Source: an uncultured Streptomyces sp.
GTDB lineage: Bacteria > Actinomycetota > Actinomycetes > Streptomycetales > Streptomycetaceae
Reading direction: 5' to 3'
Length of the DNA stretch: 15,763 nucleotides
NCBI GenBank assembly: GCA_946480485.1
Contig: CAMLJW010000075.1
Span: forward strand, 1 to 15,763
The translations under genes and the position numbers were made by a program. Positions 1-15,487 of the stretch are shown here, piece by piece. The notes under the pieces were generated by a model. That model worked only from the letters and a program-made list of their open reading frames with translations, was not told the DNA's origin and ran no database searches. Positions within the stretch are counted from its first letter, which is position 1; the number at the start of each line of letters is the position of its first letter.

Positions 1-898
1 CCACCAGGAAGACCCGGTCGGCGGCCCGGAACCGGTCGGCAACGAAGGGCCGCAGGGTCCAGCCGCGGTCCGCGAGCACCTCGAACGGCAGGTCCACGGC
101 GAGGGCACCACGGACCAGCGTCCTCGCGTCGGCGGATCCGCGGGGACCGTCGTCCGCGTCCGTCGTCAGCCGGTACAGCCCACGGCCGTCCAGCGCGCGG
201 ACGTGGAAGCGGGACGACGGCGACCCCATCAGTACGTAGCAGAGCGCGGCCCGTTCGCCGAGCCGGTCGCGCAGTTCGGGAGCGCGGAAGAGGATGTGCC
301 GCAAAGGCCGGGTGCCGTAGCGGGCGGGCGCCGCCACCCGGCATACCGCGCGGACGGCGGAGGACGCGCCGTCGCAGGCGACGAGATAGCGCGCGCGGAC
401 GGTCGTGACCTGCCCGCTGTCCAGGTCACGGACCACGGCGGCGATCCCGTCGTCGGCCGTGCGGAAGCTCTCCATCCGGTTGCGGAAGCGGATCGGCCCG
501 TGCGGGTGGACGCCCACGGCCCGGGCGAGCAGCGGCATCAGCCTGTGCTGTGGGCAGACCGCGTCCGGCTCCGGTGTGTGGGCGAAGGCAGGGCGAGCGG
601 CGGGGGTGCCGCGGCGCAGACGGTGCAGTTCGTGGCCACCTACCCGGGACACCCAGGCGATGTCGAGCGGGTGGTCGCCGGTGAGGCCCACCGCGCGGAT
701 CGCGTCCGTGAGACCGTGACGCCGGAGGATCTCCATGGAGCGTGAGCCCAGAGTGCTCACCGTCAGCGGCACCGATGAGGGGCCGCCTGCCTCGACGAGA
801 ACGAAGTCGATTCCCCGGTACCCGAGTTCGAGCGCCATCGCCATGCCGACCGGACCGCCGCCGACAATGAGGACATCCGCGTCATAGCTGTGGTTCAT
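1..898 (-). CDS. staC: RebC/StaC-type FAD-dependent monooxygenase, partial (C-terminal part beyond window edge)
   Basis: This enzyme acts on the oxidised chromopyrrolic acid intermediate and sets the oxidation state of the indolocarbazole pyrrole ring (StaC gives K252c, RebC gives arcyriaflavin). The 299 visible residues start at ATG 898, with GAAGAGG nine bases upstream. They show the FAD-binding GGGPVG (13-18), the subfamily signature GDHPLDIAW (74-82) followed by SRVGGHE, the CDGASS motif (175-180), and ILFRAPELR leading to DGRGLYRLT (Arg243). The reading frame leaves the window at RVFLV, just before the expected GDAAH FAD motif, so about 230 residues are missing compared with RebC (about 530). 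The match to RebC as I remember it is near-continuous. Oddities: the family arginine expected near residue 45-46 is absent (PLTVSTLG), and the residues reported to separate RebC from StaC are mixed here. It is divergent from staJ. Confidence 0.93.
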   Translation of the reverse strand, partial: MNHSYDADVLIVGGGPVGMAMALELGYRGIDFVLVEAGGPSSVPLTVSTLGSRSMEILRRHGLTDAIRAVGLTGDHPLDIAWVSRVGGHELHRLRRGTPAARPAFAHTPEPDAVCPQHRLMPLLARAVGVHPHGPIRFRNRMESFRTADDGIAAVVRDLDSGQVTTVRARYLVACDGASSAVRAVCRVAAPARYGTRPLRHILFRAPELRDRLGERAALCYVLMGSPSSRFHVRALDGRGLYRLTTDADDGPRGSADARTLVRGALAVDLPFEVLADRGWTLRPFVADRFRAADRVFLV

Positions 899-1131: not shown

Positions 1132-2544
1132 ATGTTGCCGGAAACCACCATGGTCCCCGCCGCGCGGGGCCCGCTGATCCCTCGGGCAACCGGAGAACTG
1201 GCTGCCCGGCTGGCCCGCTCGGGGGCCGTGACCGACGTGGGCCACGACCTGCGCACCCGGGACGTCTCCGCGTGGCTGGGCTCGCGCCGCACCGCCCACG
1301 TCTTCCAGGTCGACCGGATTCCCTTCGCCGACCTGGACGCGTGGTCCTTCGCTCCGGAGACCGGCAACCTCAAGCACCGCAGCGGCCGCTTCTTCACCGT
1401 CGAGGGACTACACGTCGCGGTGGAGGACGGACCCGTCCCCGAGTGGGAGCAGCCGATCATCAGCCAACCGGAAATCGGCGTCCTCGGCATTCTGGCCAAG
1501 AAGTTCGACGGGGTGCTCCACTTCCTGATGCACGCCAAGATGGAGCCGGGCAACCCGAACCTGCTGCAGCTGTCTCCGACCGTGCAGGCGACCAGGAGCA
1601 ACTACACCCGTCAGCACCGGGGGGCCGGCGTCAAGTTCATCGAGTACTTCCTGGAGCCACGGCGCGGGCGGGTGCTCACCGATGTGCTCCAGTCGGAACA
1701 CGGCTCGTGGTTCCACCGCAAGTTCAACCGCAACATGATCGTCGAAACACTCGACGACGTCCCCTCGGACGACGACTTCCGCTGGCTGACGATCGGCCAG
1801 ATCGGCGCGCTGCTGAAGGAATCCAACGTCGTCAACATGGACGCCCGCACGGTCCTGGCCTGCGCCTCACCCGGACACGGCGAGTCCCGCGCGCTGCTCT
1901 CGGACACCGCCCTGCTGTCCTGGATCACCGAGCAGCGATCCCGGCACCGGGTGACGGCGCGGCGCATCCCGCTGCGGAGCGTCACCGGTTGGACGCGCGG
2001 AGACGAAGCGATCACCCATGACGCGGGCCGGTACTTCAGCGTGGTGGCGGTCCGGGTCCGAGCCGGAAACCGGGAGGTCACCAGCTGGACGCAGCCGCTG
2101 TTCGCGCCGTACGGACTGGGGGTGAGCGCGTTCCTGGTCCGCCGGATCGACGGGGTGCCGCACCTGCTGGCACACGCCCGGGTGGAAGCGGGCTTCCTCA
2201 CCATGACGGAGTTGGGGCCCACCGTGCAATACACCCCCTCGAACTACGCCCATCTCCCCGAGGAGAAGCGTCCGCCCTTCCTCGACCTGGTGCTCGGTGC
2301 CGACCGCGAGCGGATCCTCTACGAGGCCGTCCACTCGGAAGAGGGCGGTCGCTTCCTGGACGCGCAGAGCCGCTGTCTGTTCGTCGAGGTGGACGAGTCG
2401 GAGGTCCCGCTGGTCCCGCCGACCGGCTACCAATGGGTCACCCCCGGCCAGTTGTGCGATCTGGCCCGGCACGGCGGCTACGTCAACGTACAGGCGCGGA
2501 CGCTGCTCGCCTGTCTCAATACGGGTGCGGTGCGCTGCGCATGA
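1132..2544 (+). CDS. staJ: NDP-hexose 2,3-dehydratase (StaJ-like)
   Basis: This 470-residue protein belongs to the NDP-hexose 2,3-dehydratase family (TylX3/OleV/StaJ), which removes the C2 hydroxyl of dTDP-4-keto-6-deoxyglucose and is the committing step to 2-deoxysugars. The family's internal duplication is plain. One half runs from Trp71 with RFFTVEG, GVLHFLMHAK and LSPTVQATRSNY; the second runs from Trp287 with RYFSVVAV, GVPHLLAHAR and LGPTVQYTPSNY. Each half ends with a matching WLTIGQ or WVTPGQ segment and an ARTxLAC motif. I chose ATG 1132 because AAGGAG (1117-1122) lies nine bases upstream; an in-frame ATG at 1069 would add 21 residues unlike the family. The length is typical. The stop overlaps the staK start (ATGA), so the two are translationally coupled. 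Confidence 0.95.
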   Translation: MLPETTMVPAARGPLIPRATGELAARLARSGAVTDVGHDLRTRDVSAWLGSRRTAHVFQVDRIPFADLDAWSFAPETGNLKHRSGRFFTVEGLHVAVEDGPVPEWEQPIISQPEIGVLGILAKKFDGVLHFLMHAKMEPGNPNLLQLSPTVQATRSNYTRQHRGAGVKFIEYFLEPRRGRVLTDVLQSEHGSWFHRKFNRNMIVETLDDVPSDDDFRWLTIGQIGALLKESNVVNMDARTVLACASPGHGESRALLSDTALLSWITEQRSRHRVTARRIPLRSVTGWTRGDEAITHDAGRYFSVVAVRVRAGNREVTSWTQPLFAPYGLGVSAFLVRRIDGVPHLLAHARVEAGFLTMTELGPTVQYTPSNYAHLPEEKRPPFLDLVLGADRERILYEAVHSEEGGRFLDAQSRCLFVEVDESEVPLVPPTGYQWVTPGQLCDLARHGGYVNVQARTLLACLNTGAVRCA

Positions 2545-3563
2545 CATCGATACGTCTCGGGGTACTGGGCTGTGCCGACATCGCCCGCCGCCGCGTCCTG
2601 CCGGCCGCGGTCGCCGCACCGGAGGTGGAGGTGGTCGCGGTCGCGAGCCGCGACCGCGTGAAGGCGAGCCTGACCGCGGCGGAGTTCGGCTGCCGTCCGG
2701 TCGTGGGCTACGCCGAGCTGCTGGAGCGGGATGACGTGGACGCGGTGTACGTGCCGCTGCCGGCGGCCCTGCACGCCGAGTGGGTCGAGGCGGGCCTGCG
2801 CGCGGGCAAGCACGTCCTCGCGGAGAAGCCGCTGACCACCGACCTCACGCGGACCGCCGAACTCGTCGCGCTGGCGCGCTCCCTGAGACTGGCGCTGTGG
2901 GAGAACGTTATGTTCGTCCACCACTCCCAGCACCGCGAGGTACGGCGCGTCCTCGCGTCCGGGGCCATCGGGGAGCCGAGGTTCTTCCGTTCCGCCTTCG
3001 CCGTCCCCCGGCGGCCGAAGGACGATATCCGCCACCGTGCCGACCTGGGCGGCGGTGCCCTGTGGGATACCGGGGTCTACCCGCTCCGGGCGGCGCAGCA
3101 CTTCCTAGGCGGACAGCTGCGCACCGTTGGTGCCACGCGAGTGGTGGATCCGCGGGCGGGGGTGGATGTCTGCGGCGCCGCACTGCTGCGGTCCCGCGAC
3201 GGGGTGAGCGCGCACCTGTCCTACGGCCTCGACAACGCGTACCAGTCCCTGTACGAACTGTGGGGCAGCGAGGGCCGGATCGTGGTCGAGCGGGCCTTCA
3301 CCCCGGCCGCGGACCACCGGCCGGAGGTGCGGCTCTTCCGCGGCACGGGAATGGAAACGATCCGGCTCGACGCCGACGACCAGGTCTCACGCACACTGGC
3401 GGGCTTCGCGGCGGCAGTGCGCGAGGACCCTGGGCCCGACCCGCACATCGTGCCGTTGGCCCGGCTGCTGGAGAACGTCCGCCGCGCGGCGGACGGCACC
3501 CCGGACGAGGCCTTACGGGGTCAGACGCGGGCGGCTCCCTCGATCTCCCGGCACCGTGCGTAG
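2541..3563 (+). CDS. staK: NDP-sugar 3-ketoreductase, Gfo/Idh/MocA family (StaK-like)
   Basis: A 340-residue NAD(P)H-dependent reductase expected to reduce the 3-keto group left by the 2,3-dehydratase, giving a 4-keto-2,6-dideoxy sugar. The N-terminal Rossmann segment is GVLGCADIAR (7-16). AEKPLTTDL (94-102) carries the EKP motif, and the later GGGALWDTGVYP matches the C-terminal catalytic region of the family. Whether C3 is reduced to the axial or equatorial alcohol cannot be read from sequence. It starts at ATG 2541 inside the staJ stop. Leu325 is encoded by TTA (3513-3515), the only in-frame TTA I found in any gene here, which suggests bldA control. The last 43 bases overlap the 3' end of the minus-strand staE, so the tail RAAPSISRHRA is probably not constrained. 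Confidence 0.93.
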   Translation: MTSIRLGVLGCADIARRRVLPAAVAAPEVEVVAVASRDRVKASLTAAEFGCRPVVGYAELLERDDVDAVYVPLPAALHAEWVEAGLRAGKHVLAEKPLTTDLTRTAELVALARSLRLALWENVMFVHHSQHREVRRVLASGAIGEPRFFRSAFAVPRRPKDDIRHRADLGGGALWDTGVYPLRAAQHFLGGQLRTVGATRVVDPRAGVDVCGAALLRSRDGVSAHLSYGLDNAYQSLYELWGSEGRIVVERAFTPAADHRPEVRLFRGTGMETIRLDADDQVSRTLAGFAAAVREDPGPDPHIVPLARLLENVRRAADGTPDEALRGQTRAAPSISRHRA

Positions 3564-4123
3564 TCGGGCAGCAGTCCCCGCTGGTGCGCCTCGGCCAGGG
3601 TGATCGCGGCGCGGTCCCGCTCGGACACCACGGGGTCGATGTCCTCGGGGATGGGGAGGGCCAGCTCCGGATCGAGGACGGAGACAGCGAGTTCGACGCT
3701 CGGCACATACCGTGCGGACAGCATGTACGACATGACGGTGTGGTCCGTCAGCGCGACGAAGGCGTGGCCCACGCCGTGGGGGAAGTAGACGGCGCGGAAC
3801 TCTTGTTGGTTCATCGGCACCGCGTCCCACCGGCCGAAGGTGGGCGAGCCGACCCTGAGGTCGATCACGATGTCCAGTGCCTCGCCGGCGGCGCAGTACA
3901 CGTACTTCGCGACGCCGGGCGGGGTCACCGTGTAGTGGACCCCCCGGACCACGCCACGGCGGGACAAGCTGTGGTTGGTCTGCGCGACGGGGAACAGCGG
4001 GCCGCCGTGGGCCGCCATGAACGCCGCTTCCTGGAACGGGGAGACGAACAGGCCCCGGTCGTCGGTGAACGCGGGAGCTGTGAACTCCAGGGCTCCGTCG
4101 ACGGCGAGCTTGCGTGATTCCAT
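3521..4123 (-). CDS. staE: dTDP-4-keto-6-deoxyhexose epimerase, RmlC family (StaE-like)
   Basis: A 200-residue cupin of the RmlC family that epimerises a dTDP-4-keto-6-deoxysugar at C5 or C3 and C5, turning the D-series into the L-series. Visible signatures are DDRGLFVSPF (21-30), VVRGVHY with the catalytic-type His63, the DIVIDLRVGSPTFGRW block (84-99), GVGHAFVALTD with His120, and the closing RGLLPDY. Length and ends match the family. It starts at ATG 4123 with GGAGGA only three bases upstream, a short but usable spacing. It is transcribed against its neighbours and converges on staK with a 43-bp overlap, leaving no room for a terminator between them. With the Rml genes at 11.6-14.6 kb it completes an L-deoxysugar pathway. 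Confidence 0.95.
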   Translation of the reverse strand: MESRKLAVDGALEFTAPAFTDDRGLFVSPFQEAAFMAAHGGPLFPVAQTNHSLSRRGVVRGVHYTVTPPGVAKYVYCAAGEALDIVIDLRVGSPTFGRWDAVPMNQQEFRAVYFPHGVGHAFVALTDHTVMSYMLSARYVPSVELAVSVLDPELALPIPEDIDPVVSERDRAAITLAEAHQRGLLPDYARCREIEGAARV

Positions 4124-4416: not shown

Positions 4417-7400
4417 GTGAGCGTCTTCGAACTGCCGCGGCTGCACTTCAGCGGAACGGCGACAACCCATCTTCCGACCGGCCCACGCGGCGGCCTGGTC
4501 GATCTGGCGACGAACACGGCGCTCACCGCCGACGGCCGGCCGTTCCCGGCCGACCGGCCGCCCACCGAGTACCACGACTACCTGGACCGGCTCGGCCCGA
4601 GGTTCGACGCCGAGGGCCGCCTCACGCCGGACGGGCCGTTCAGCGCGGCCCGGGGGGAGAACTTCGCAGGCAGCGGCCACTTCTCGATCGACGCGCGCAT
4701 CACCGGCGTGGAGACCGGCCCCGGACGCGTCGACGTCGCCGACTCGGTGGCCGGCCGGTGTGTCGACATGTGGGGGCACTACAACGAGTACCTGGCCACG
4801 ACGGCGAACCGGGCGCGGGTGTTCGACGTGGACCCCGCCTCGGATTGGACGACGACGCTCATGGTGGGGCAGTTCTGCTTCGGCCGGAGCGGGCGCTCCC
4901 ACGACACCGGATACATGGCCAGCGGAACGGTCCACGGCTTCCAGCCCCCGCGCTGGCTCAACCTCCGGCACGTCCGGGCGTTCGAGGAGCACGTCCTGGC
5001 GAAGCGGCTGCGCCGCTCCGTCGTCCACCAGTTCGTGGTCGCCACAGACGACGGCCTGGCATGGCTGGACGAGACGGACGCCTCGCCCGCCGTACGGCGG
5101 TTGCGCGAGGTGGTGGCGTCGGACGAGTACGGCGGTCTCGTCGTCCAGTTCGCGCTGAGCCACATGACACCGCCGCAGGCGCCCGACCGGCCGAGCCAGT
5201 GGCACCTGCGCGGGACCATCGCCCCCTGGCGCCCGGACGAGCTCGCGACCTACCCGGCGGGGCGGCTGCTCGTACCGGACCGGGACGAGGAGGGCGCTCG
5301 GGCCGAGGGCCCGCACATCATGACCGTCGCGCTGACGGACGGGCACGCGACCTTCAACATGATCAGCGCGCTGCCCTCGCTGCGCCGCGCCGACCTGGCC
5401 GAGCCGCCCGCCCCGGTCGACCTGGGCGACCTGGAGCTGCGCGGCGCCGACACCGGGCGACTCGTGGCCCGGCTGCCCAGGGAGGCATACCTCGGCGAGG
5501 AGTACCACCTGACCAGCGGCATCGTCACGGTGCCCAGCGAGCTCACCGCCGAGACCATGGGCGAGGAGGCGCTGTGTCTGGTCCTGGCGGACTGCTCCGG
5601 CGGACGGCCGCGACTACGCGAGCGGGAGGTCAACGTCCAGGCCGACGAGGCGAGCCTCATCGTGGAACACCCTCGCGACGCCGGCGACCGGGACCATGAC
5701 GTCGAGATCGCGGTCAGGTCCTACGTACGGGGCCGTCCGGCGCCCGTTTCAGGGATCGCGGTACGGCAGTTCTTCAACCCTGCGGCACTCCCCCGCGACC
5801 CCGCCGCGCGCTCCGCCGAGGCCCGCTGCACCGATGTCGCTGTCGCGCGGCTGCGGCCCGGCAGGCTCGGGGAGTCCGGTGCCTGGTCGGACACCTGTGA
5901 CCTCGGCACGGACACCACGGGGCGGGGGTGGTTCACGCTGCGAGGAGCGCGGGCCGGCACCGCCCGGGTCCTGATGTCCACCGGCCCGGACGACATACCC
6001 TGCGACACCGGGCGCGTCGGCTCCGCCGCTCTCGGCCACGACCACGCCGACACCCTCGGATTCTGGCCCGGCGCCGGACACCTGTCGCTGCGCGTGCTCC
6101 CCGACGACTGGCCTCCGGCCGACGCCCAGCAGCCGGACGACGTGACGTTCCAGCAGGTCTACACGGAGGTCTTCGCCTACTACGAGCAGGTGTACTCGTT
6201 CATGAAGGCGGAGGTCTTCGCACTGACAGACTCGTGCCGGGTGGAGACCTACGCCCAGCTCATTTGGCAGATGTGCGATCCCCGCAACAAGGCCAGGACG
6301 TACTACATGCCGCCCACCAGGGACCTGACGCGCCCCAAGGCGGAGCTGCTGCTGAGCTTCCTGAGGACCCAGCAGAAGCCGCGCGAGGTGACCCGAATCC
6401 TGCCTCCGTCGCACCGGCCGGACGGCGGAATCCGCAGCCGGGGGGAGCTGGTCACCGCACTGCGCCAAGCGGTCACCCTCGAACTTGCCGTCATGCTCCA
6501 GTACCTGTACGCGGCCTACTCGGTACCCGCCCACGGCACGGCCCTGACGTACGTACGGGAAGGGCTGTGGACACCCGAGCAGCTCCGGCTCGTCTGCGGG
6601 GACGGCGGCAGGACGCCGGATGGTGGGATCCGCGGCACGCTGCTGGAGGTCGCCCGCGAGGAGATGATCCACTTCCTGCTCGCCAACAACATCCTCATGG
6701 CGATCGGCGAACCGTTCTTCGTCCCGACGGTCGACTTCGGCACCGTCAACTGCGAGCTGGACGTGCCGCTGGACTTCTCTCTGGAGGCACTGGGCCGGGG
6801 CAGCGTCGAGCGGTTCCTCCTGATCGAGCAGCCCGACGACCACGTGGGCGAGGTACGGCTCGGCGACACGCCCACAGCGACCGCCGACCGTGAGGGGGTG
6901 GGCTACGGCTCGATCAGCGAGCTGTACGGAAACATCCGCGAAGGACTGCAGCGCGTCCCGGATCTCTTCCTCGTCGAGCCCGGCAGGGGCGGCGGGGAGC
7001 ACCACCTCTTCCTGCGCGAGTCGATCAACCACCGGCACCCCGACTACCAGCTCCAGGTGGATGACCTGCGCAGCGCGCTGTTCGCCGTCGACGTCATCAC
7101 CGAGCAGGGGGAGGGCGGTGTGCTGACGGAGGAGAGCGAGGAGGAGTCACACTACACCGCCTTCCTGCGGATCGCCGACGTCCTGGCGAGCGAGCCCCTC
7201 GCCACACCGGGCGGTCCGGGCCGACGACGGTGGAGCCCGGCGTACCCGGTGGTGCGCAACCCCACGCTGCGCCGCGGGGACCACGTGCTCCAGACGGTCA
7301 CCGATCCGGACGCCCGCGCGGTCATGCGGTTGTTCAACCGCGCCTACTTCCTGACCCTGCAACTGATGGCACAGCACTTCGGCGAGGGTCCCGACCGCAG

Positions 7401-7695
7401 CCTGCGCAGGTCCGACCTGATGAACGGCGCCATCGACGTGATGACGGGCATCATGCGTCCGCTGGCCGAACTCCTGGTCACCCTGCCCTCGGGCCATCGC
7501 GGCACGACCGCCGGACCGTCGTTCGAGCTGGACTCCCAGCCCGCCTGTGTCTCCCGCCCGGACGTGGCTCGACGCGGCATCGCGCTGCGCTTCGACCACC
7601 TCGCCGCGGTCTGCCGCAAGAACCCCCTGGTCCCGACGCGGGTGGCCGAACTGAGCGCCTTCTGGGCAGACCACTTCCGCCCCGCCGACTCCTGA
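4417..7695 (+). CDS. staD: Chromopyrrolic acid synthase (StaD/RebD, VioB family)
   Basis: This 1092-residue protein couples two molecules derived from indole-3-pyruvate imine (made from tryptophan by an RebO/StaO oxidase, not in this window) into chromopyrrolic acid, the indolocarbazole precursor. The N-terminus SVFELPRLHFSG and the segments WGHYNEYLATTANRAR, QFALSHMTPPQ and YPAGRLL align with VioB as I remember it. The C-terminal half carries the ferritin-like part: LELAVMLQYLYAAYS (688-702), REEMIH (747-752) and GGEHHLFL (859-866), followed by LMNGAIDVMTGIMRPL. I chose GTG 4417 because AGGGG (4403-4407) sits nine bases upstream and the N-terminus then matches the family. It is somewhat longer than RebD and VioB (about 1000), mainly in the middle region before LRVLPDDWPP. 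It is the first gene of the rightward run. Confidence 0.96.
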   Translation: MSVFELPRLHFSGTATTHLPTGPRGGLVDLATNTALTADGRPFPADRPPTEYHDYLDRLGPRFDAEGRLTPDGPFSAARGENFAGSGHFSIDARITGVETGPGRVDVADSVAGRCVDMWGHYNEYLATTANRARVFDVDPASDWTTTLMVGQFCFGRSGRSHDTGYMASGTVHGFQPPRWLNLRHVRAFEEHVLAKRLRRSVVHQFVVATDDGLAWLDETDASPAVRRLREVVASDEYGGLVVQFALSHMTPPQAPDRPSQWHLRGTIAPWRPDELATYPAGRLLVPDRDEEGARAEGPHIMTVALTDGHATFNMISALPSLRRADLAEPPAPVDLGDLELRGADTGRLVARLPREAYLGEEYHLTSGIVTVPSELTAETMGEEALCLVLADCSGGRPRLREREVNVQADEASLIVEHPRDAGDRDHDVEIAVRSYVRGRPAPVSGIAVRQFFNPAALPRDPAARSAEARCTDVAVARLRPGRLGESGAWSDTCDLGTDTTGRGWFTLRGARAGTARVLMSTGPDDIPCDTGRVGSAALGHDHADTLGFWPGAGHLSLRVLPDDWPPADAQQPDDVTFQQVYTEVFAYYEQVYSFMKAEVFALTDSCRVETYAQLIWQMCDPRNKARTYYMPPTRDLTRPKAELLLSFLRTQQKPREVTRILPPSHRPDGGIRSRGELVTALRQAVTLELAVMLQYLYAAYSVPAHGTALTYVREGLWTPEQLRLVCGDGGRTPDGGIRGTLLEVAREEMIHFLLANNILMAIGEPFFVPTVDFGTVNCELDVPLDFSLEALGRGSVERFLLIEQPDDHVGEVRLGDTPTATADREGVGYGSISELYGNIREGLQRVPDLFLVEPGRGGGEHHLFLRESINHRHPDYQLQVDDLRSALFAVDVITEQGEGGVLTEESEEESHYTAFLRIADVLASEPLATPGGPGRRRWSPAYPVVRNPTLRRGDHVLQTVTDPDARAVMRLFNRAYFLTLQLMAQHFGEGPDRSLRRSDLMNGAIDVMTGIMRPLAELLVTLPSGHRGTTAGPSFELDSQPACVSRPDVARRGIALRFDHLAAVCRKNPLVPTRVAELSAFWADHFRPADS

Positions 7696-7920: not shown

Positions 7921-8754
7921 ATGACCGACTCCACCCAGACACTGCCCGTGCCGGAAGCCGTCGGGGAACTGTACGACCGGCTGACACTGACCGCGATGAA
8001 CGACGGCACCTGCAACCCCCACGTGCACATCGGCTTCTGGGACACACCGGACTCCGAGGCCTCGCTGGATGATGCGGTGGTCCGGCTCGCCGACGTGGTC
8101 ATCGATCGGCTGACGGTGGACGACTCCGCCCACGTCCTCGACCTGGGCTGCGGGGTGGGCGGTCCGGCCCTGCGGATCACGGCGCGCACCAGTGCGCGGG
8201 TCACCGGCATCAGCATCAGCCCGGAGCAGGTCAAGGCCGCCAACCGGCTGGCGGCGGAGGCCGGGGTCGCCGACCGGGCCGTGTTCCGCCATGCCGATGC
8301 GATGAAGCTCCCCTTCGCGGACCAGTCGTTCGACGCCGTGCTGGCCCTGGAGTCGATCGGTCACATGCCGGACCGGCAGCAGGCGCTCACCGAGGCGTGC
8401 CGGGTCCTGCGCCCCGGCGGCCGGATCGTCCTGACCGACGCGTTCGAGCGTGCCCCGCGCAAGGAGGTGCGGCACCCGGCCATCGACACGTTCTGCCGCA
8501 ACTTCATGGTGACCATGGCGGACGTCGACGACTACGTCGCGCTGCTCCACCGTTCCGGACTGCGGCTGCGCAACCTCCTCGACATCACGGAGCAGACCAC
8601 GCAGCGCACCTGCCAGGAGCTGTCGAAGTCGGTGCCCGGCGGGGCCCGCCCCGAGGGCATCGACCCGACCCACCTCCCCGACCTGTGGCACCCGTCCGAC
8701 ATGCTCGGCGTCGACGAGTTCGGCTACCTCCTGGTCGTCGCGGAACGACCGTGA
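7921..8754 (+). CDS. SAM-dependent methyltransferase, RebM/StaM-like (probable sugar O-methyltransferase)
   Basis: A 277-residue class I methyltransferase. SAM motif I is VLDLGCGVGGPA (72-83), followed by VTGISISPEQV (94-104), HADAMKLPF (124-132), ALESIGHMPD (142-151) and RVLRPGG (161-167). The order and wording match RebM, the rebeccamycin 4'-O-methyltransferase, and the StaMA/StaMB family. ATG 7921 has GAAAGG (7907-7912) eight bases upstream. The likely job is methylation of a sugar hydroxyl on the glycosylated indolocarbazole. If the sugar lacks an amino group, as the rest of the window suggests, N-methylation is unlikely; 3'-O (as in staurosporine) and 4'-O (as in rebeccamycin) remain open. 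I leave the symbol blank because sequence alone does not separate these roles. A terminator-like hairpin follows its stop by 10 bases. Confidence 0.9.
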   Translation: MTDSTQTLPVPEAVGELYDRLTLTAMNDGTCNPHVHIGFWDTPDSEASLDDAVVRLADVVIDRLTVDDSAHVLDLGCGVGGPALRITARTSARVTGISISPEQVKAANRLAAEAGVADRAVFRHADAMKLPFADQSFDAVLALESIGHMPDRQQALTEACRVLRPGGRIVLTDAFERAPRKEVRHPAIDTFCRNFMVTMADVDDYVALLHRSGLRLRNLLDITEQTTQRTCQELSKSVPGGARPEGIDPTHLPDLWHPSDMLGVDEFGYLLVVAERP

Positions 8755-8932: not shown

Positions 8933-10237
8933 GTGGCACGAGTGTTGATCGCGACGAGCCCCGCGGAAGGGCACGTCACCCCGGTGTCCTGGGTCGCCCG
9001 GGAGTTGATCGCGCGCGGACACGAGGTCCGCTGGTACACCGGCAAGGCGTACCGACGGAAGGTCGGCAGCACCGGCGCGGTGCACGAACCCATGAGGCGC
9101 GCCCTCGACTTCTCCGGACACAACCGAGAAGAAGCCTTTCCCGGCCATGCCGGGCTGACAGGCATCGCCAGCTTCAAGGTGGGTGTCAAGGAGATCTTCT
9201 ACGACTCGGCCCCGGATCAGGCCGAGGACCTGCTGGACATCCTCGGCGACTTCCCCGCCGACGTCCTGGTCGGCGACGACATGTGCTACGGAGCGTGCTT
9301 CGCACACGAGCTGAGCGGTATACCGCTGGCCTGGATCAGCAATTCCGTCTACATCCTGGGCAGTCGGGACACGGCCCCGCTGGGGCTCGCACTGCCTCCC
9401 AGCTCCTCACCCCTGGGACGACTGCGCAACCGACTGCTCCGCGCGGTCAACGACCACCTCGTCATGCGGGACGTCCGGCGCCACGCGGACCGGACGCGCA
9501 CCCGCATGGGCCTGCCCCGTCTGACGACTGCGGCGATGGAGAACATCGCCGAGCCGCCGGATCTCTACCTGGTCGGCACTACGCCGTCCTTCGAGTACCC
9601 GCGGACCGACCTGCTGCCCCAGACCCACTTCGTGGGTCTCTTCTCCGGCCCGCCGCCCGAGGAGTTCGACCCGCCCGGGTGGTGGGAGGACATGCTCGCC
9701 CACGGTCCGGTCGTGCTGGTGACCCAGGGAACGACCGCGAACGACGCCGGACGCCTCCTCGCTCCCGCGATCCGGGCCCTCGCGGACCGGGACGTGTTCG
9801 TGGTGGTGACCACCGGCGGCGCCACCGCGCAGGAGGTGTGGTCCGGACCGCTGCCGCCGAACGTCAGAGTGGAGCCCTTCATCCCGTACGCCCATCTGCT
9901 GCCGCACGTGGACGTGATGATCAGCAACGGCGGCTTCAACGGGGTGCACATGGCCCTCGGTCACGGCATCCCGCTCGTCGTGACTCCGGCAACGGAGGAG
10001 AAGGGCGAGGTGGCGGCGCGCGTCAGCCGGGCGGGAGCGGGCCTGACGATCACCCGGAGCGCCATCACCGAGGCGTCGATCCGGGACGCCGTGGACGAAG
10101 TACTGAACGATCCGCGGTACCGGCTTCGCGCCCGTGAACTACAGGCCGAGCAGCGCGAGTACGACGGGCCCAGCCGTGCCGCCGAGCTGATCGAAACCCT
10201 GGCCGCCCAGGGGCGGCGCGCCATCCGGACCGGATGA
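8933..10237 (+). CDS. staG: Indolocarbazole N-glycosyltransferase, GT1 family (StaG/RebG-like)
   Basis: A 434-residue GT-B fold glycosyltransferase expected to move the deoxysugar from dTDP onto an indole nitrogen of the aglycone. The N-terminus VARVLIATSPAEGHVTP has the acceptor-side His14, and EVRWYTGKAY resembles RebG. The donor-binding region is ISNGGFNGVHMALGHGIPLV (330-349), followed by TEEKGEVAARV (354-364); this is the modified GT1 signature with Asn in place of the usual His before GG. I chose GTG 8933, with GAGGA at 8916-8920 upstream (12-base spacing, slightly long). The frame is open back to 8759, but the added residues are low-complexity and would lie before the canonical first beta-strand. 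Placement directly before the P450 fits the staG-staN pair of staurosporine clusters. Confidence 0.92.
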   Translation: MARVLIATSPAEGHVTPVSWVARELIARGHEVRWYTGKAYRRKVGSTGAVHEPMRRALDFSGHNREEAFPGHAGLTGIASFKVGVKEIFYDSAPDQAEDLLDILGDFPADVLVGDDMCYGACFAHELSGIPLAWISNSVYILGSRDTAPLGLALPPSSSPLGRLRNRLLRAVNDHLVMRDVRRHADRTRTRMGLPRLTTAAMENIAEPPDLYLVGTTPSFEYPRTDLLPQTHFVGLFSGPPPEEFDPPGWWEDMLAHGPVVLVTQGTTANDAGRLLAPAIRALADRDVFVVVTTGGATAQEVWSGPLPPNVRVEPFIPYAHLLPHVDVMISNGGFNGVHMALGHGIPLVVTPATEEKGEVAARVSRAGAGLTITRSAITEASIRDAVDEVLNDPRYRLRARELQAEQREYDGPSRAAELIETLAAQGRRAIRTG

Positions 10238-10346: not shown

Positions 10347-11570
10347 ATGACTGCTGATGCGCTGCTGGAAGCCCCCGTGTTCTCGATGCGCACCGCGACC
10401 GACGACGGTGACTGCATGCCGGAGATGCATGACGCCCGGCGGACCGCACCCGTCGTGCGCGTTCCCTTCGCCGGACGGGAAGCGTGGGTGGTGTGCGAAC
10501 CCGCACTGGCCCGGGCGGCGCTCACCGACATCCGGCTGAGCAAGGACGTGCGCCTGATCCCCGGCTGGATGCGCGTTCCCGGTTCGATGCTCGGGTCGCA
10601 GCCTCCGCCGGAGGACGGTGTCGCTATGGTGATGAGCGAGGGCGAGGAGCACGCCCGGATCCGGCGGGCCCATGCCAAGGCGTTCAGCCCCCGGCACACG
10701 GAGAACTGGCAGCGGCACATCCGCGATGTGGTCGACACCCTGCTGGACCGGCTCACCGTGCACGACGGCGCGGAAGCGGTGAACTTGGTGGACACGTTCG
10801 CGTACCCGCTGCCGATCACGTTCTTCTCCGAGATGCTAGGCCTGCCGCCCGAGATCGAGCCGACCATGCGCCGGATCACCGAAGAGATCATCTTCCATCC
10901 GGACATCGCGGTGCGGCAGACGGCCGTACCCGCCCTGTACGGCACGATCGCCGAGTGTCTGGAGGAGCAGTCCAAGCTCGGACCGGGGCTGATCGTCGAC
11001 ATCATCAGCCATGTGGAGGGGGACGGACGGACCGTCACGCCTCCGGAGGCCATCACCTGGACCGTCGGTCTGGTGATCGCGGGTTGGGAGTCCACCGCGA
11101 GTCTGATCAGCTCCGCGCTGTACGAGGCCGTGCGGCGCCCGGTGACGCAGCGGCCGGCCACGGAAGAGGAGGTGACGGCCTGGGTCGAGGAGACCCTCCG
11201 GGTCCACCCCCCGTTCCTCAGCGCGACCTGGCGGTTCGCCACCGAAGACGTCGAACTGGGCGGCTATCTCCTGCCCGAGGGGGCTCCGGTACTGGTCAAC
11301 CTGGCCTCGGCCAACCGCGTTACCGCCGAGACCCCGGAGGACTTCGATTCCGCGGGTGGGGGCCGGGGCCACATCAGCTTCGGGCTGGGGCACCACTTCT
11401 GCCTCGGAGCACCGCTGGCCCGGCTGGAGGCCAGGATGGCCGTACAGGCGTTCCTGGAGGCGTTTCCGAAGGCACAGTTGAGCGACGTCGGTCTTACGTG
11501 GCAGTCCGAGTGGCTGACCCGCCGGCTCAGCGTGCTGCCGGTGCACCTGAAGGGGAAGGGCGGGTCGTGA
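10347..11570 (+). CDS. staN: Cytochrome P450, StaN-like (second sugar-indole C-N bond)
   Basis: A 407-residue soluble bacterial P450. Visible motifs are HARIRR (102-107, helix C), the I-helix AGWEST (245-250), EETLR (281-285, ExxR) and the heme loop FGLGHHFCLG with Cys352 as ligand. The I-helix has Glu248 but Ser249 where most P450s have Thr. Two in-frame ATGs lie close together (10341, 10347); I chose 10347 because GGAG (10335-10338) is then eight bases upstream. Its position between the glycosyltransferase and rmlA, and its poor resemblance to StaP as I remember it, favour StaN, which oxidatively links C5' of the sugar to the second indole nitrogen. The alternative, aryl-coupling StaP, is less likely. 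Its stop overlaps the staA GTG start, so the two are coupled. Confidence 0.85.
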   Translation: MTADALLEAPVFSMRTATDDGDCMPEMHDARRTAPVVRVPFAGREAWVVCEPALARAALTDIRLSKDVRLIPGWMRVPGSMLGSQPPPEDGVAMVMSEGEEHARIRRAHAKAFSPRHTENWQRHIRDVVDTLLDRLTVHDGAEAVNLVDTFAYPLPITFFSEMLGLPPEIEPTMRRITEEIIFHPDIAVRQTAVPALYGTIAECLEEQSKLGPGLIVDIISHVEGDGRTVTPPEAITWTVGLVIAGWESTASLISSALYEAVRRPVTQRPATEEEVTAWVEETLRVHPPFLSATWRFATEDVELGGYLLPEGAPVLVNLASANRVTAETPEDFDSAGGGRGHISFGLGHHFCLGAPLARLEARMAVQAFLEAFPKAQLSDVGLTWQSEWLTRRLSVLPVHLKGKGGS

Positions 11571-12634
11571 AGGCTCTCGTACTGGCCGGCGGCTCCGGCA
11601 CGCGTCTGCGTCCCATCACCCACACCTCGGCGAAGCAACTGGTGCCGGTCGCCAACAAACCGGTGCTCTTCTACGGTCTCGAAGCGATCGCCGAGGCTGG
11701 GATCACCGAAGTCGGGATCGTCGTGGGCGACACCGCGGACGAGATCAAGTCGGCCGTGGGCGACGGTTCGAAATACGGCCTCACTGTCACGTACATCCGG
11801 CAGGAGGCCCCCCTGGGGCTGGCGCACGCGGTGCTCATCGCCCGGGAACACCTGGGCGACGACGACTTCGTGATGTATCTCGGCGACAACTTCGTCCTCG
11901 GCGGCATCACCGGCTTGGTCGACGGTTTCCGCGCCACCCGGGCGGATGCGCAGATCATGCTCAGCCGGGTACGCGATCCGACCGCCTTCGGCGTCGCCGA
12001 ACTCGATTCCTCCGGGCGGGTGGTGCGGCTGGAGGAGAAGCCGAGCGAGCCCCGCAGCGACCTGGCCCTGGTCGGGGTCTACCTCTTCGGCCCGGCGATC
12101 CACGAGGCCGTGCGGGCCATCAGGCCGTCCTGGCGCGGCGAGTTGGAGATCACCCACGCCATCCAGTGGCTGGTCGACCACGACAAGGACGTCGGGTCCA
12201 CCGTCATCTCGAAGTACTGGAAGGACACCGGCAACGTGGCCGACATGCTGGAGGTCAACCGGTTGGTGCTGGAGGACCTGGAGCCCGCGGTGCGGGGCAC
12301 GGTCGACGAGACCAGCGAGATCATCGGCAAGGTACGGATCGATGAGGGTGCCGAGGTTACCGGCAGCCGGATCGTCGGTCCCGCGGTCGTCGGTACGAAC
12401 ACCGTCATACGCGGTTCGTACATCGGCCCGTTCACCTCCGTCTCGGAGAACTGCCGCGTCGAGGACAGCGAGATCGAGTACTCGATCGTGCTGCCCGGGT
12501 CCTCGGTGACCGGGGTGCGGCGGATCGAGGCGTCCCTGATCGGCCGCGGCGTAGAGGTCACCCCTGCCCCGCGCTCGCCCGCCGCGCACCGTCTCGTGCT
12601 CGGCGATCACAGCAAGGTGCAGATCGCCTCATGA
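11567..12634 (+). CDS. staA: Glucose-1-phosphate thymidylyltransferase (StaA/RmlA, long form)
   Basis: A 355-residue nucleotidyltransferase that makes dTDP-glucose from glucose-1-phosphate and dTTP. The N-terminus KALVLAGGSGTRLRP carries the pyrophosphorylase signature, followed by AKQLVPVANKP and YLGDNFVLGG with the metal-binding type Asp. It is the long secondary-metabolite type (StrD-like, about 355 residues): after the catalytic domain, residues from about 250 on form hexapeptide-type repeats of a left-handed beta-helix (IIGKVRIDEGAEV, VGTNTVIRGSYIG, EDSEIEYSIVLPG). It starts with GTG 11567 overlapping the P450 stop, and its own stop overlaps the staB ATG, so it is in one coupled operon. 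Confidence 0.97.
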   Translation: MKALVLAGGSGTRLRPITHTSAKQLVPVANKPVLFYGLEAIAEAGITEVGIVVGDTADEIKSAVGDGSKYGLTVTYIRQEAPLGLAHAVLIAREHLGDDDFVMYLGDNFVLGGITGLVDGFRATRADAQIMLSRVRDPTAFGVAELDSSGRVVRLEEKPSEPRSDLALVGVYLFGPAIHEAVRAIRPSWRGELEITHAIQWLVDHDKDVGSTVISKYWKDTGNVADMLEVNRLVLEDLEPAVRGTVDETSEIIGKVRIDEGAEVTGSRIVGPAVVGTNTVIRGSYIGPFTSVSENCRVEDSEIEYSIVLPGSSVTGVRRIEASLIGRGVEVTPAPRSPAAHRLVLGDHSKVQIAS

Positions 12635-13689
12635 CGACACGGATTCTCGTCACCGGTGGTGCCGGGTTCATCGGTTCGCACTACGTGCGGACCCTGCTCG
12701 GCGCCGAGGGCCCGGACGCGGTCGAGGACATCCGGGTGACCGTTCTCGACAAGCTCACCTACGCGGGCAACCCGGCCAACCTCGACCCGGTGCGCGGGCA
12801 CCCGGGCTTCTCCTTCGTGCGAGGCGACATCTGCGATGCCCCGCTGGTCGACGAGCTGATGGCCGGGCACGACCACGTCGTGCACTTCGCCGCCGAGTCC
12901 CATGTGGACCGCTCGATCGACGGCAGCGCCGAGTTCGTCCGGACGAACGTCGTCGGCACCCACACGCTGGTCGACGCCGCGTACCGGGCCGGGATCGGGA
13001 CGTTCGTCCACATCTCCACGGACGAGGTGTTCGGCTCGATCGACGAGGGCTCGTGGCTGGAGACGGACCCGCTGCGGCCCAACTCGCCATACGCGTCGTC
13101 CAAGGCGGCCGCCGACCTGATCGCCCTGTCGTACCACCGCACGCACGGACTGGACGTCCGGGTGACCCGCTGCTCCAACAACTACGGGCACCACCACTTC
13201 CCGGAGAAGGTCATCCCGCTGTTCATCACGCAGCTGCTGGACGGCAGGAAGGTCCCGCTGTACGGCGACGGTCGCAACGTGCGCGACTGGCTGCACATCG
13301 ACGACCACGTCCAGGGCATCGAGCTGGTCCGTACGAAGGGCCGGCCGGGTGAGGTCTACAACATCGGCGGCGGCACCGAGCTGTCCAACGAGGAGCTGAC
13401 GAAGCTCCTGCTGGACGCGAACGGCGCCGCGTGGGAGGGCAGCGTCGAGTACGTCGCCGACCGCAAGGGGCACGACCGGCGTTACTCAGTGGACTGGACC
13501 AGAATCCGCGAGGAGACGGGCTACGCGCCCCGCAAGGACTTCGTGGTCGGGCTGGCGGAGACCATGCGGTGGTACCGCGACAACCGCGCCTGGTGGGAGC
13601 CGCTCAAGGAAAACGTCCGTCTGCCGGACGGGGTGGCCGACGTGGCGGCCTCGGAGCCGGGGCACGAGGGAAGGAGCATCGGGGCATGA
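12631..13689 (+). CDS. staB: dTDP-glucose 4,6-dehydratase (StaB/RmlB)
   Basis: A 352-residue extended short-chain dehydrogenase that converts dTDP-glucose to dTDP-4-keto-6-deoxyglucose, the branch point for all the sugar steps here. Visible motifs are VTGGAGFIGSH (7-17) for NAD binding, FAAESHVDRSI (87-97), ISTDEVFG (128-135) with the dehydratase Asp131-Glu132 pair, and Tyr154xxxLys158 (YASSK). NNYGHHHFPEK and GDGRNVRDWLHIDDH are standard for the family. The start ATG 12631 overlaps the staA stop, and the stop overlaps the next ATG. Length is typical, with a slightly long acidic tail. Confidence 0.97.
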   Translation: MTTRILVTGGAGFIGSHYVRTLLGAEGPDAVEDIRVTVLDKLTYAGNPANLDPVRGHPGFSFVRGDICDAPLVDELMAGHDHVVHFAAESHVDRSIDGSAEFVRTNVVGTHTLVDAAYRAGIGTFVHISTDEVFGSIDEGSWLETDPLRPNSPYASSKAAADLIALSYHRTHGLDVRVTRCSNNYGHHHFPEKVIPLFITQLLDGRKVPLYGDGRNVRDWLHIDDHVQGIELVRTKGRPGEVYNIGGGTELSNEELTKLLLDANGAAWEGSVEYVADRKGHDRRYSVDWTRIREETGYAPRKDFVVGLAETMRWYRDNRAWWEPLKENVRLPDGVADVAASEPGHEGRSIGA

Positions 13690-14582
13690 GCGGCTGCTGG
13701 CTGGTGACCGGAACCCGCGGCATGCTGGGCCAGGACCTGGTGGACCGGCTGCGCCGGGACGGGCAGGAGGTGGTGGGAACGGCCGCCGCCGACCTCGACA
13801 TCACCGATCGTGCGGCGGTGTTCGCGGTGGTGGAGCGGTACCGCCCGGCCGTCGTCGTCAACTGCGCCGCCTGGACCGCCGTGGACGACGCCGAGAGCCG
13901 GGCGGACGAAGCCCTGCGCGTCAACGGCGCCGGCCCCCGTCACCTCGCCGAGGCGTGTGCCCGCTACGGCGGCGTACTGCTTCAGGTCTCCACGGACTAC
14001 GTCTTCCCGGGCGATGCCACGACCCCGTACGCCGAGGACGCCCCCACCGGCCCGAGTAGCGTGTACGGGCGCACGAAACTCGCCGGGGAACAGGCGGTCC
14101 GCTCGCTCCTGCCGGACCGCGGCTACATCGTGCGGACCGCGTGGCTGTACGGCCGAGGCAGGCCGAACTTCGTCCGTACGATGATCAGACTGGAATCCGT
14201 CAAGAGCACTGTCGAGGTGGTGGACGACCAGTACGGGCAGCCCACGTGGACGGTAAATCTCGCCGACCGTCTGGTGCTGCTCGGCCGAACGGCGGTGGCG
14301 GGCACCGCCCCAGCGGGGATCTACCACGGCACGAGTGGCGGCGCCACGACGTGGTGCGGACTGGCCCGGGAGATCTTCCGGCTGCTGGGCGCGGACCCCG
14401 CGCGGGTCCACCCCGTCACCGGCGCGTCCTTGGCCCGGCCGGCGCCCCGGCCCGCCTACACCGTGCTCGGCCACGACCGGTGGGCGGACGCCGGCCTCGC
14501 GCCCATCCTGGACTGGCGCGAGGCGCTGCGGGAGTCGATCGGCACCCTGAAGGCGGCGGAGCACCACGCCAGAGGTTGGTGA
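13686..14582 (+). CDS. rmlD: dTDP-4-keto-6-deoxyhexose 4-reductase, RmlD family
   Basis: A 298-residue short-chain reductase of the dTDP-4-dehydrorhamnose reductase (RmlD/StrL) family, reducing the C4 ketone of a dTDP-4-keto-6-deoxy sugar to a hydroxyl. Motifs: LVTGTRGMLGQ (6-16) for the nucleotide, NCAAWTAVDDAE (59-70), VSTDYVFPG (101-109) and Tyr127xxxLys131 (YGRTK). Start ATG 13686 overlaps the staB stop and has AAGGAG (13671-13676) nine bases upstream. It is the last gene of the rightward operon, followed by a hairpin at 14631. A 4-ketoreductase is not part of amino-sugar (staurosporine) assembly, where an aminotransferase acts at C4; its coupling to staA-staB points to a neutral 4-hydroxy sugar. 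A housekeeping rhamnose role is possible but less likely in this operon. Confidence 0.94.
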   Translation: MSGCWLVTGTRGMLGQDLVDRLRRDGQEVVGTAAADLDITDRAAVFAVVERYRPAVVVNCAAWTAVDDAESRADEALRVNGAGPRHLAEACARYGGVLLQVSTDYVFPGDATTPYAEDAPTGPSSVYGRTKLAGEQAVRSLLPDRGYIVRTAWLYGRGRPNFVRTMIRLESVKSTVEVVDDQYGQPTWTVNLADRLVLLGRTAVAGTAPAGIYHGTSGGATTWCGLAREIFRLLGADPARVHPVTGASLARPAPRPAYTVLGHDRWADAGLAPILDWREALRESIGTLKAAEHHARGW

Positions 14583-15100: not shown

Positions 15101-15487
15101 TCACTGCTCCTGCGGGCCCTGCTCGCCCTGCTGCTCCGCGATGGACTTGCGGACCTCGTCCATGTCCAGCTTCCGGGCCTGCCCGATGACGTCTGTCAGG
15201 GCGGACTCGGGCAGCGCCCCGGGCTGGGCGAAGACCGCCACCTGATCGCGGACGACCATCAGCGTCGGAATCGACTGGATGTCGAAGGCCGCTGCCAGCT
15301 CCGGCTGCGCCTCCGTGTCCACCTTGCCGAAGACAAGGTCGGGGTTGGCCTCCGCCGCCTTCTCGTAGACGGGCGCGAACTGCCGGCATGGACCGCACCA
15401 GGACGCCGAGAAGTCGATCAGCACGAACTCGTTGTCCGTGACCATCTGGTCGAAGTTGTCCTTGGTGAGCTCCACGGTGCTGCTCAT
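15101..15487 (-). CDS. trxA: Thioredoxin
   Basis: A 128-residue cytoplasmic thioredoxin that reduces protein disulfides. The active site is WCGPC (30-34) and the cis-proline is in SIPT (Pro74); the core beta-strands VLIDFSASW and DLVFGKVDTEA are standard. It has a longer than usual charged C-terminal tail (from about residue 105, ending GEQGPQEQ). I chose ATG 15487 (SSTVELTKDNF) because it gives the family N-terminus; GGGAA lies eight bases upstream. The frame extends to 15562 but that part is not thioredoxin-like. It is divergent from the flavoprotein gene and unrelated to indolocarbazole synthesis as far as the sequence shows. Confidence 0.96.
   Translation of the reverse strand: MSSTVELTKDNFDQMVTDNEFVLIDFSASWCGPCRQFAPVYEKAAEANPDLVFGKVDTEAQPELAAAFDIQSIPTLMVVRDQVAVFAQPGALPESALTDVIGQARKLDMDEVRKSIAEQQGEQGPQEQ

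What the first reader, a model, noticed from the sequence alone, without database searches (positions are those of the whole stretch)
11567..14582. 4-ketoreductase instead of aminotransferase predicts a neutral-sugar staurosporine relative
staA, staB and an RmlD-family 4-ketoreductase are translationally coupled, and 2,3-dehydratase, 3-ketoreductase and RmlC-type epimerase genes lie upstream. Together they make a 2,6-dideoxy-L-hexose with a 4-hydroxyl. Staurosporine needs a 4-amino sugar (StaI) and its N-methyltransferase; no aminotransferase is present in the window. With a StaG- and StaN-like pair, the expected product is a staurosporine-type alkaloid with 4'-OH or 4'-OMe (RK-286C-like, from memory) instead of a 4'-methylamine.
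Basis: partly seen in the sequence, partly recalled or inferred. Interest (0 to 1): 0.7.

Follow-up and report, generated by a model that had tools for sequence, protein, structure and literature searches.

The report
Neutral-sugar staurosporine-like gene cluster

Summary
In detail: RmlA, RmlB and RmlD genes overlap by 4 bases, a 2,3-dehydratase, a 3-ketoreductase and an RmlC/EvaD-type epimerase lie upstream, StaG- and StaN-like genes are present, and no aminotransferase is in the window. In staurosporine StaI is a hexose-3-aminotransferase and a 4-ketoreductase (StaK) is already present. So RmlD replaces StaK, and the Gfo/Idh 3-ketoreductase (2541-3563, coupled to the dehydratase) stands in StaI's place. 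The one methyltransferase is StaMB-type (66% vs 35% to StaMA), predicting 3'-OMe, 4'-OH (RK-286C-like), not 4'-OMe. Of 22 comparison loci with StaG and StaN, none shows such a 3-ketoreductase in the stretch held; one (MUM 2J, K-252a-like) shares the RmlABCD set. The cluster looks like a mosaic. Caveats: the window is cut at the left (StaO and StaP are also missing), so StaI is not excluded; and the cut FAD monooxygenase has RebC-type, not StaC-type, residues, so C-7 oxidation is open. A 94%-identical 'StaG-like' protein from an uncultured bacterium is already public; soil-DNA hydroxysporine may be the same kind.

The parts
2..898 (-). RebC/StaC-family FAD monooxygenase, cut by the window's left end; 81% to the second such paralogue of Streptomyces sp. 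MUM 2J
1132..2544 (+). NDP-hexose 2,3-dehydratase (EvaA/StaJ type)
   Evidence: tree groups it with a dideoxysugar-cluster dehydratase (L077) and Salinispora StaJ, support 1.0
2541..3563 (+). Gfo/Idh/MocA sugar 3-ketoreductase, ATGA-coupled to the dehydratase; the enzyme that stands in place of the 3-aminotransferase
3521..4123 (-). dTDP-4-keto-sugar epimerase, EvaD/StaE type (3' end overlaps the ketoreductase tail to tail)
4417..7695 (+). chromopyrrolic acid synthase StaD/RebD/VioB family; 81% to MUM 2J
7921..8754 (+). SAM methyltransferase, StaMB-type (O-methyltransferase of staurosporine)
8933..10237 (+). StaG-like N-glycosyltransferase; 94% to P0121 'StaG-like glycosyltransferase [uncultured bacterium]'
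10347..11570 (+). StaN/SpcN-family cytochrome P450 (second C-N bond)
11567..12634 (+). RmlA/StaA glucose-1-phosphate thymidylyltransferase
12631..13689 (+). [quoted passage not shown]
13686..14582 (+). RmlD-type 4-ketoreductase (in place of StaK); 80% to MUM 2J RmlD, 67-71% to the Streptomyces RmlD proteins aligned

Best explanation
This is the right-hand part of an indolocarbazole cluster whose sugar branch makes a neutral 2,6-dideoxy-L-hexose. Proposed route: RmlA and RmlB give dTDP-4-keto-6-deoxyglucose; the 2,3-dehydratase gives the 3,4-diketo-2,6-dideoxy sugar; the 3-ketoreductase, not an aminotransferase, sets a 3-OH; the EvaD-type epimerase inverts C5 (possibly C3 too); RmlD reduces the 4-ketone; the StaG-like enzyme attaches the sugar to one indole nitrogen, the StaN/SpcN-type P450 closes the second C-N bond, and the StaMB-type enzyme methylates hexose O-4 (staurosporine O-3'). 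Expected sugar part: 3'-OMe, 4'-OH, as in RK-286C. If the epimerase acts at C5 only and the ketoreductase leaves an equatorial 3-OH, the donor is L-digitoxose, the same ribo pattern as staurosporine's amino sugar (recalled as L-ristosamine). Gene content, order and coupling are shown; every catalytic step, the stereochemistry and the product are inferred.
Against: The left end is cut: StaO, StaP and any StaI could lie there. The P450 is only about 50% to StaN and its place within the StaN-containing clade is unresolved (support 0.27; 0.97 for the wider clade, which also holds P450s of two loci without StaG). The FAD monooxygenase has RebC-type residues, so the aglycone may not be K252c. Six genes (FAD monooxygenase, RmlC, StaD, RmlA, RmlB, RmlD) are, among the loci compared, nearest to MUM 2J, described as K-252a-like (PMC13200232), which leaves a ring-contracted product possible. 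RmlABCD alone would give L-rhamnose. EvaD, though called 5''-specific, showed proton exchange at both 3'' and 5'' in PMC9095892, so the C5-only step is unsure.
Confidence: 0.6

Rival explanations
1. A K-252a-type cluster: the sugar is further oxidised (FAD enzymes left of the window) and the pyranose contracts to a furanose carboxylate that is methylated.
For: StaD, FAD monooxygenase, RmlA, RmlB, RmlC and RmlD are 81, 81, 87, 84, 74 and 80% to Streptomyces sp. MUM 2J, whose cluster PMC13200232 (section 5) says holds homologues of all K-252a genes plus two FAD enzymes.
Against: MUM 2J has no match to the window's 2,3-dehydratase in its genome (0 matches, while the 3 other genomes in the same search matched), no StaMB-type methyltransferase in the 23 kb of L001, and only distant Gfo/Idh proteins (at most 35% identity, partial). 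The window has all three, which fits a 3'-O-methylated pyranose.
Confidence: 0.12
2. Ordinary staurosporine-type amino-sugar cluster with StaI, StaMA, StaO and StaP left of the window; the 3-ketoreductase is redundant.
For: The window is truncated; StaO and StaP must lie outside it. In S. jumonjinensis a StaI relative lies on another contig than the cluster.
Against: A dedicated 3-ketoreductase coupled to the dehydratase would compete for StaI's substrate; StaK is not seen and RmlD is; in the 18 of 22 comparison loci that hold StaI it lies beside StaJ, StaK and StaE, and the StaJ and StaE homologues of the window have no such neighbour.
Confidence: 0.1
3. Both L-rhamnose (RmlABCD) and the dideoxyhexose are made, giving a mixture or a rhamnosyl product (K252d-like).
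For: RmlD is 67-71% to the Streptomyces RmlD proteins, with the STDYVF and YxxxK motifs invariant in all 17 sequences; a staurosporine-cluster glycosyltransferase (SpcG) was proposed to use dTDP-L-rhamnose when the aminotransferase was knocked out (PMC3640393).
Against: The epimerase is EvaD-type rather than RmlC-type by score, and a 2,3-dehydratase and 3-ketoreductase are in the same gene set.
Confidence: 0.1

Closest known systems
Staurosporine cluster (sta/spc; S. clavuligerus L076)
   Same: StaD, StaG, StaN, StaA, StaB, StaJ, StaE, StaMB homologues (50-74%); G-N-A-B order
   Different: no StaI, StaK or StaMA orthologue in the window; 3-ketoreductase and RmlD instead; FAD monooxygenase of RebC-type residues; other gene order otherwise
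Streptomyces sp. MUM 2J cluster (L001; K-252a-like variant of PMC13200232)
   Same: closest StaD, FAD monooxygenase, RmlA, RmlB, RmlC, RmlD among the loci compared (74-87%); RmlC divergent from StaD; A-B-D order
   Different: no 2,3-dehydratase match in the genome; no window-type 3-ketoreductase; no StaMB-type gene in the 23 kb of L001; glycosyltransferase only 60%
RK-286C (4'-demethylamino-4'-hydroxystaurosporine)
   Same: predicted 4'-OH, 3'-OMe sugar
   Different: no cluster assigned to it according to PMC13200232; another producer, S. sanyensis FMA, carries a staurosporine-type cluster (PMC3640393)
hys cluster / hydroxysporine (soil environmental DNA)
   Same: tryptophan-dimer cluster from uncultured soil bacteria; P0121 'StaG-like glycosyltransferase [uncultured bacterium]' is 94% to the window's
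   Different: hydroxysporine's structure and the hys gene content could not be read here; among the 120 listed hits the best nr-sourced relatives are 65% for the 3-ketoreductase and 79% (the MUM 2J protein) for RmlD, so identity with hys is not shown
2,6-dideoxysugar cassettes (for example Streptomyces sp. W1SF4 plasmid L077; OleV/OleW type by recall)
   Same: dehydratase followed by Gfo/Idh ketoreductase
   Different: no indolocarbazole genes annotated in that stretch

Membership tests
staurosporine-type (doubly N-linked sugar) indolocarbazole cluster | chromopyrrolic acid synthase StaD | tested here: met
   60% to S. clavuligerus StaD over the full length; tree places it with exactly the 22 StaG+StaN loci, support 1.0
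staurosporine-type (doubly N-linked sugar) indolocarbazole cluster | StaO and StaP genes | tested here: inconclusive
   not in the window, which is cut on the left; MUM 2J has them in the corresponding flank
staurosporine-type (doubly N-linked sugar) indolocarbazole cluster | StaG N-glycosyltransferase and StaN P450 | tested here: met
   63% and 50%; P450 best solved match SpcN 8k1x. That it makes the second C-N bond is not testable here
staurosporine-type (doubly N-linked sugar) indolocarbazole cluster | StaC-type FAD monooxygenase giving the K252c lactam | tested here: inconclusive
   the window enzyme has RebC-type Q117/R239/T241; 19 of 20 enzymes scored in StaG+StaN loci are StaC-type, the exception being MUM 2J's second paralogue; MUM 2J also has a StaC-type one; left flank unread
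staurosporine proper (amino sugar) | StaI 3-aminotransferase and StaMA N-methyltransferase | tested here: inconclusive
   no orthologue in the window; left flank unread
staurosporine proper (amino sugar) | StaK-type 4-ketoreductase | tested here: inconclusive
   no orthologue in the window (best match lies in RmlB, 27.5%); RmlD-type enzyme present; left flank unread
RK-286C-like product | 2,3-dehydratase, 3-ketoreductase, epimerase, 4-ketoreductase and StaMB-type methyltransferase together | tested here: met
   all five gene types in the window
RK-286C-like product | the compound itself | not testable with these tools
   needs expression and LC-MS/NMR
K-252a-type cluster | ring-contracted, carboxymethyl sugar | not testable with these tools
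   needs left flank and product; the K-252a reference cluster itself was not fetched (only the InkG protein P0220 was seen)

The most novel reading that the evidence does not exclude
The cluster makes an indolocarbazole not described before: a staurosporine-like, doubly N-linked, O-methylated neutral dideoxyhexose on a rebeccamycin-type aglycone fully oxidised at C-7, built from a MUM 2J-like backbone, a borrowed dideoxysugar cassette and a RebC-type monooxygenase.
Probability: 0.2. Interest if true: 0.6.

Novelty: new variant of a known kind. Interest (0 to 1): 0.42.

Why it matters
Staurosporine-type kinase inhibitors differ mainly in the sugar and in C-7 oxidation. A natural cluster in which a 3-ketoreductase and RmlD take the place of StaI and StaK would be a candidate gene source for the RK-286C type, for which a 2026 survey (PMC13200232) lists no cluster, and a ready set of parts for exchanging amine for hydroxyl. 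The mosaic also shows how amino- and neutral-sugar branches can be exchanged between indolocarbazole clusters.

Tried and rejected
Whole genome of the window: none held. A near search of plasmids found only partial, mostly 60-80% matches (47 records, none covering 80% of the query); viral contigs none. No Rfam match; promoter and terminator scans at chance level. Of eight competing reading frames scanned, seven show no Pfam domain and the eighth contains RmlA in frame.

Dihydrostreptose (StrL-type) role for RmlD: considered because an RmlD paralogue is proposed to contract the ring in streptose-type sugars (PMC9095892). Weakened because the protein is 67-71% to ordinary Streptomyces RmlD; StrL itself was not compared. 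Reading P0121 as hys: not provable here, the record could not be fetched. Papers: 10 searches; I found no paper in the listings that describes this cluster, but most subscription journals, including the original hydroxysporine paper (recalled), are not held. Most papers were seen as passages only; of PMC13200232 I read section 5.

Rows dropped: tblastn pieces under 60 aa, under 100 aa and below bit-score limits in the trees, under 200 aa (L046 is fragmented; L002 ends before StaC), under 300 aa. One search ended in a script error after the tree was printed. The control (Pfam dehydratase family) did not ring, so I rely instead.
Full report
What is there. The window holds the right-hand part of an indolocarbazole cluster. 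From left to right: a cut RebC/StaC-family FAD monooxygenase (2-898, minus), a 2,3-dehydratase (1132-2544), a Gfo/Idh 3-ketoreductase (2541-3563), an RmlC/EvaD-type epimerase (3521-4123, minus), StaD (4417-7695), a methyltransferase (7921-8754), a StaG-like glycosyltransferase (8933-10237), a StaN-like P450 (10347-11570), RmlA, RmlB and RmlD (11567-14582), and, probably outside the cluster, a thioredoxin gene (15101-15487, minus). P450, RmlA, RmlB and RmlD overlap by 4 bases at each of the three junctions, as do dehydratase and 3-ketoreductase.

What is missing. Against the annotated S. clavuligerus staurosporine-like cluster (L076; gene names assigned by me from order and family), the window has homologues of StaA, B, C, D, E, G, J, MB and N, and no orthologue of StaI, StaK, StaMA, StaO or StaP. 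StaO and StaP are needed for any indolocarbazole, so the cluster continues to the left and absence of StaI from the window proves little alone. The positive sign is the 3-ketoreductase.

The numbering error in the finding. A 2025 review calls StaI a 3-aminotransferase and StaK the 4-ketoreductase, and names RK-286C 4'-demethylamino-4'-hydroxystaurosporine (PMC12525477, passages). Hexose C3 is thus staurosporine C4'. A 4-ketoreductase is needed in both pathways; here RmlD takes StaK's place, and the 3-ketoreductase takes StaI's. The methyltransferase is 66% to StaMB and 35% to StaMA and falls in the StaMB clade (support 0.88), so a 3'-O-methyl is expected and no N-methyltransferase is seen.

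Comparison with other clusters. StaD brought in 75 loci of sequenced genomes (the best 80 of 86 matching stretches were kept). With L076, 22 loci carry both StaG and StaN. In the stretches held, 18 of these 22 have StaI, 19 StaK, 0 a relative of the window's 3-ketoreductase, 1 RmlD (L001, MUM 2J). The four without StaI are L001, L002 (contig ends), L050 (J-K-I-E not in the held stretch; a 63% dehydratase lies on another contig of that genome) and L059 (see noticed in passing). A search of 392 Streptomyces genomes with the glycosyltransferase gave 21 matches at E 1e-60 or better. Ten are of 51% identity or more, one of them MUM 2J's; I fetched flanks of the other nine, for two of them only the left side, the right being in L005 and L044. 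None of the nine showed an RmlD match, and the only 3-ketoreductase-like gene was a 35% match 11.6 kb from StaN.

Ancestry. Among the loci compared, the window's StaD, FAD monooxygenase, RmlA, RmlB, RmlC and RmlD are nearest to MUM 2J (81, 81, 87, 84, 74 and 80%; for RmlD only). Its glycosyltransferase (60%) is not, and MUM 2J has no match to the dehydratase in its genome (the 3 other genomes searched matched). The dehydratase groups with that of a dideoxysugar gene set on a Streptomyces plasmid (L077) and with Salinispora StaJ (support 1.0). I read this as a mosaic: a MUM 2J-like (rhamnose-type; K-252a-like by PMC13200232) backbone plus a dideoxysugar cassette and a StaMB-type methyltransferase. 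The direction of exchange is inferred.

A point against a plain staurosporine aglycone. RebC (2r0c) and a RebC variant (4eip; from memory the StaC-like RebC-10x) differ at 117, 216, 231, 239 and 241 among others (RebC numbering worked out by me from the alignment). At 117/239/241 the window enzyme has Q/R/T, the RebC state; at 216 it has C, neither state, and at 48 S, the variant's state. Of 20 enzymes scored in the StaG+StaN loci, 19 have A at 117 with N or T at 239, and the one exception is MUM 2J's paralogue nearest to the window's. Of 36 other rows, 28 are RebC-like (Q or H at 117, R at 239) and 8 StaC-like; of these 8, six are StaC genes of further StaG-bearing loci or of MUM 2J itself, and two are L009 and L040. 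MUM 2J has both types. So either a true StaC lies left of the window or the product is oxidised at C-7; StaC and RebC are known to give different C-7 oxidation (PMC11484176, passage).

What is already known. PMC13200232 (section 5 read) states that only the staurosporine and K-252a clusters of the doubly linked class were reported and lists RK286c as without a cluster. Against novelty: RK286c was isolated from S. sanyensis FMA, whose described cluster is staurosporine-type (PMC3640393, passages); a glycosyltransferase 94% identical to the window's is public as 'StaG-like glycosyltransferase [uncultured bacterium]' (P0121); and the hys cluster for hydroxysporine was obtained from soil DNA (PMC8123854, PMC6022970, passages). 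I could not read the hys gene content or the structure. Among proteins, the three 3-ketoreductase relatives of 84-89% come only from metagenome-type sources, and named organisms reach at most 68% (best 120 of 4942 listed). RmlD is matched by one such protein with a single residue changed (P0241) and by three more at 83-87%.

Verdict. Observation confirmed. Product class plausible and the best reading (0.6), with the responsible enzyme corrected. New variant of a known kind; the open left flank decides most of it.

Noticed in passing
window 2-898 (-), L001 1319-2605, L119 1511-3118: MUM 2J carries two RebC/StaC-family monooxygenases, one StaC-type and one with RebC-type residues; the window's cut enzyme is the partner of the RebC-type one.
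   Followed up: partly
L059 15655-18935; G002:C200:147123-149786: In S. jumonjinensis the staurosporine-like cluster has J-K-E without StaI between them; a 74% StaI relative lies on another contig next to a second 2,3-dehydratase.
   Followed up: partly
L050 14680-18392; L121 8160-18644: Two further Streptomyces clusters have StaMA and StaMB side by side with no J, K, I or E match between them, so their sugar genes lie elsewhere or are lost (for L050 a dehydratase on another contig).
   Followed up: no
L001 18358-22314: Right of RmlD the MUM 2J contig has a MycE_N-type methyltransferase and a berberine-bridge-type FAD oxidase.
   Followed up: no
L012 21791, L013 21791, L017 21723: Three Lentzea clusters have a second StaN-family P450 after StaC; the two aligned are 52-53% to the window's P450.
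   Followed up: no
L009 16244, L040 12981: StaN-family P450 genes in indolocarbazole loci without a StaG match, together with StaC-type monooxygenases.
   Followed up: no
L132-L135 (G200, G305): Two Streptomyces genomes have a 54% StaG relative near StaJ, StaK, StaE and StaI relatives but no StaD or StaO match in about 37 kb: perhaps the same glycosyltransferase type on another aglycone.
   Followed up: no
window 15101-15487 (-): A thioredoxin gene after about 0.5 kb without a clear gene right of RmlD, a likely cluster edge.
   Followed up: no
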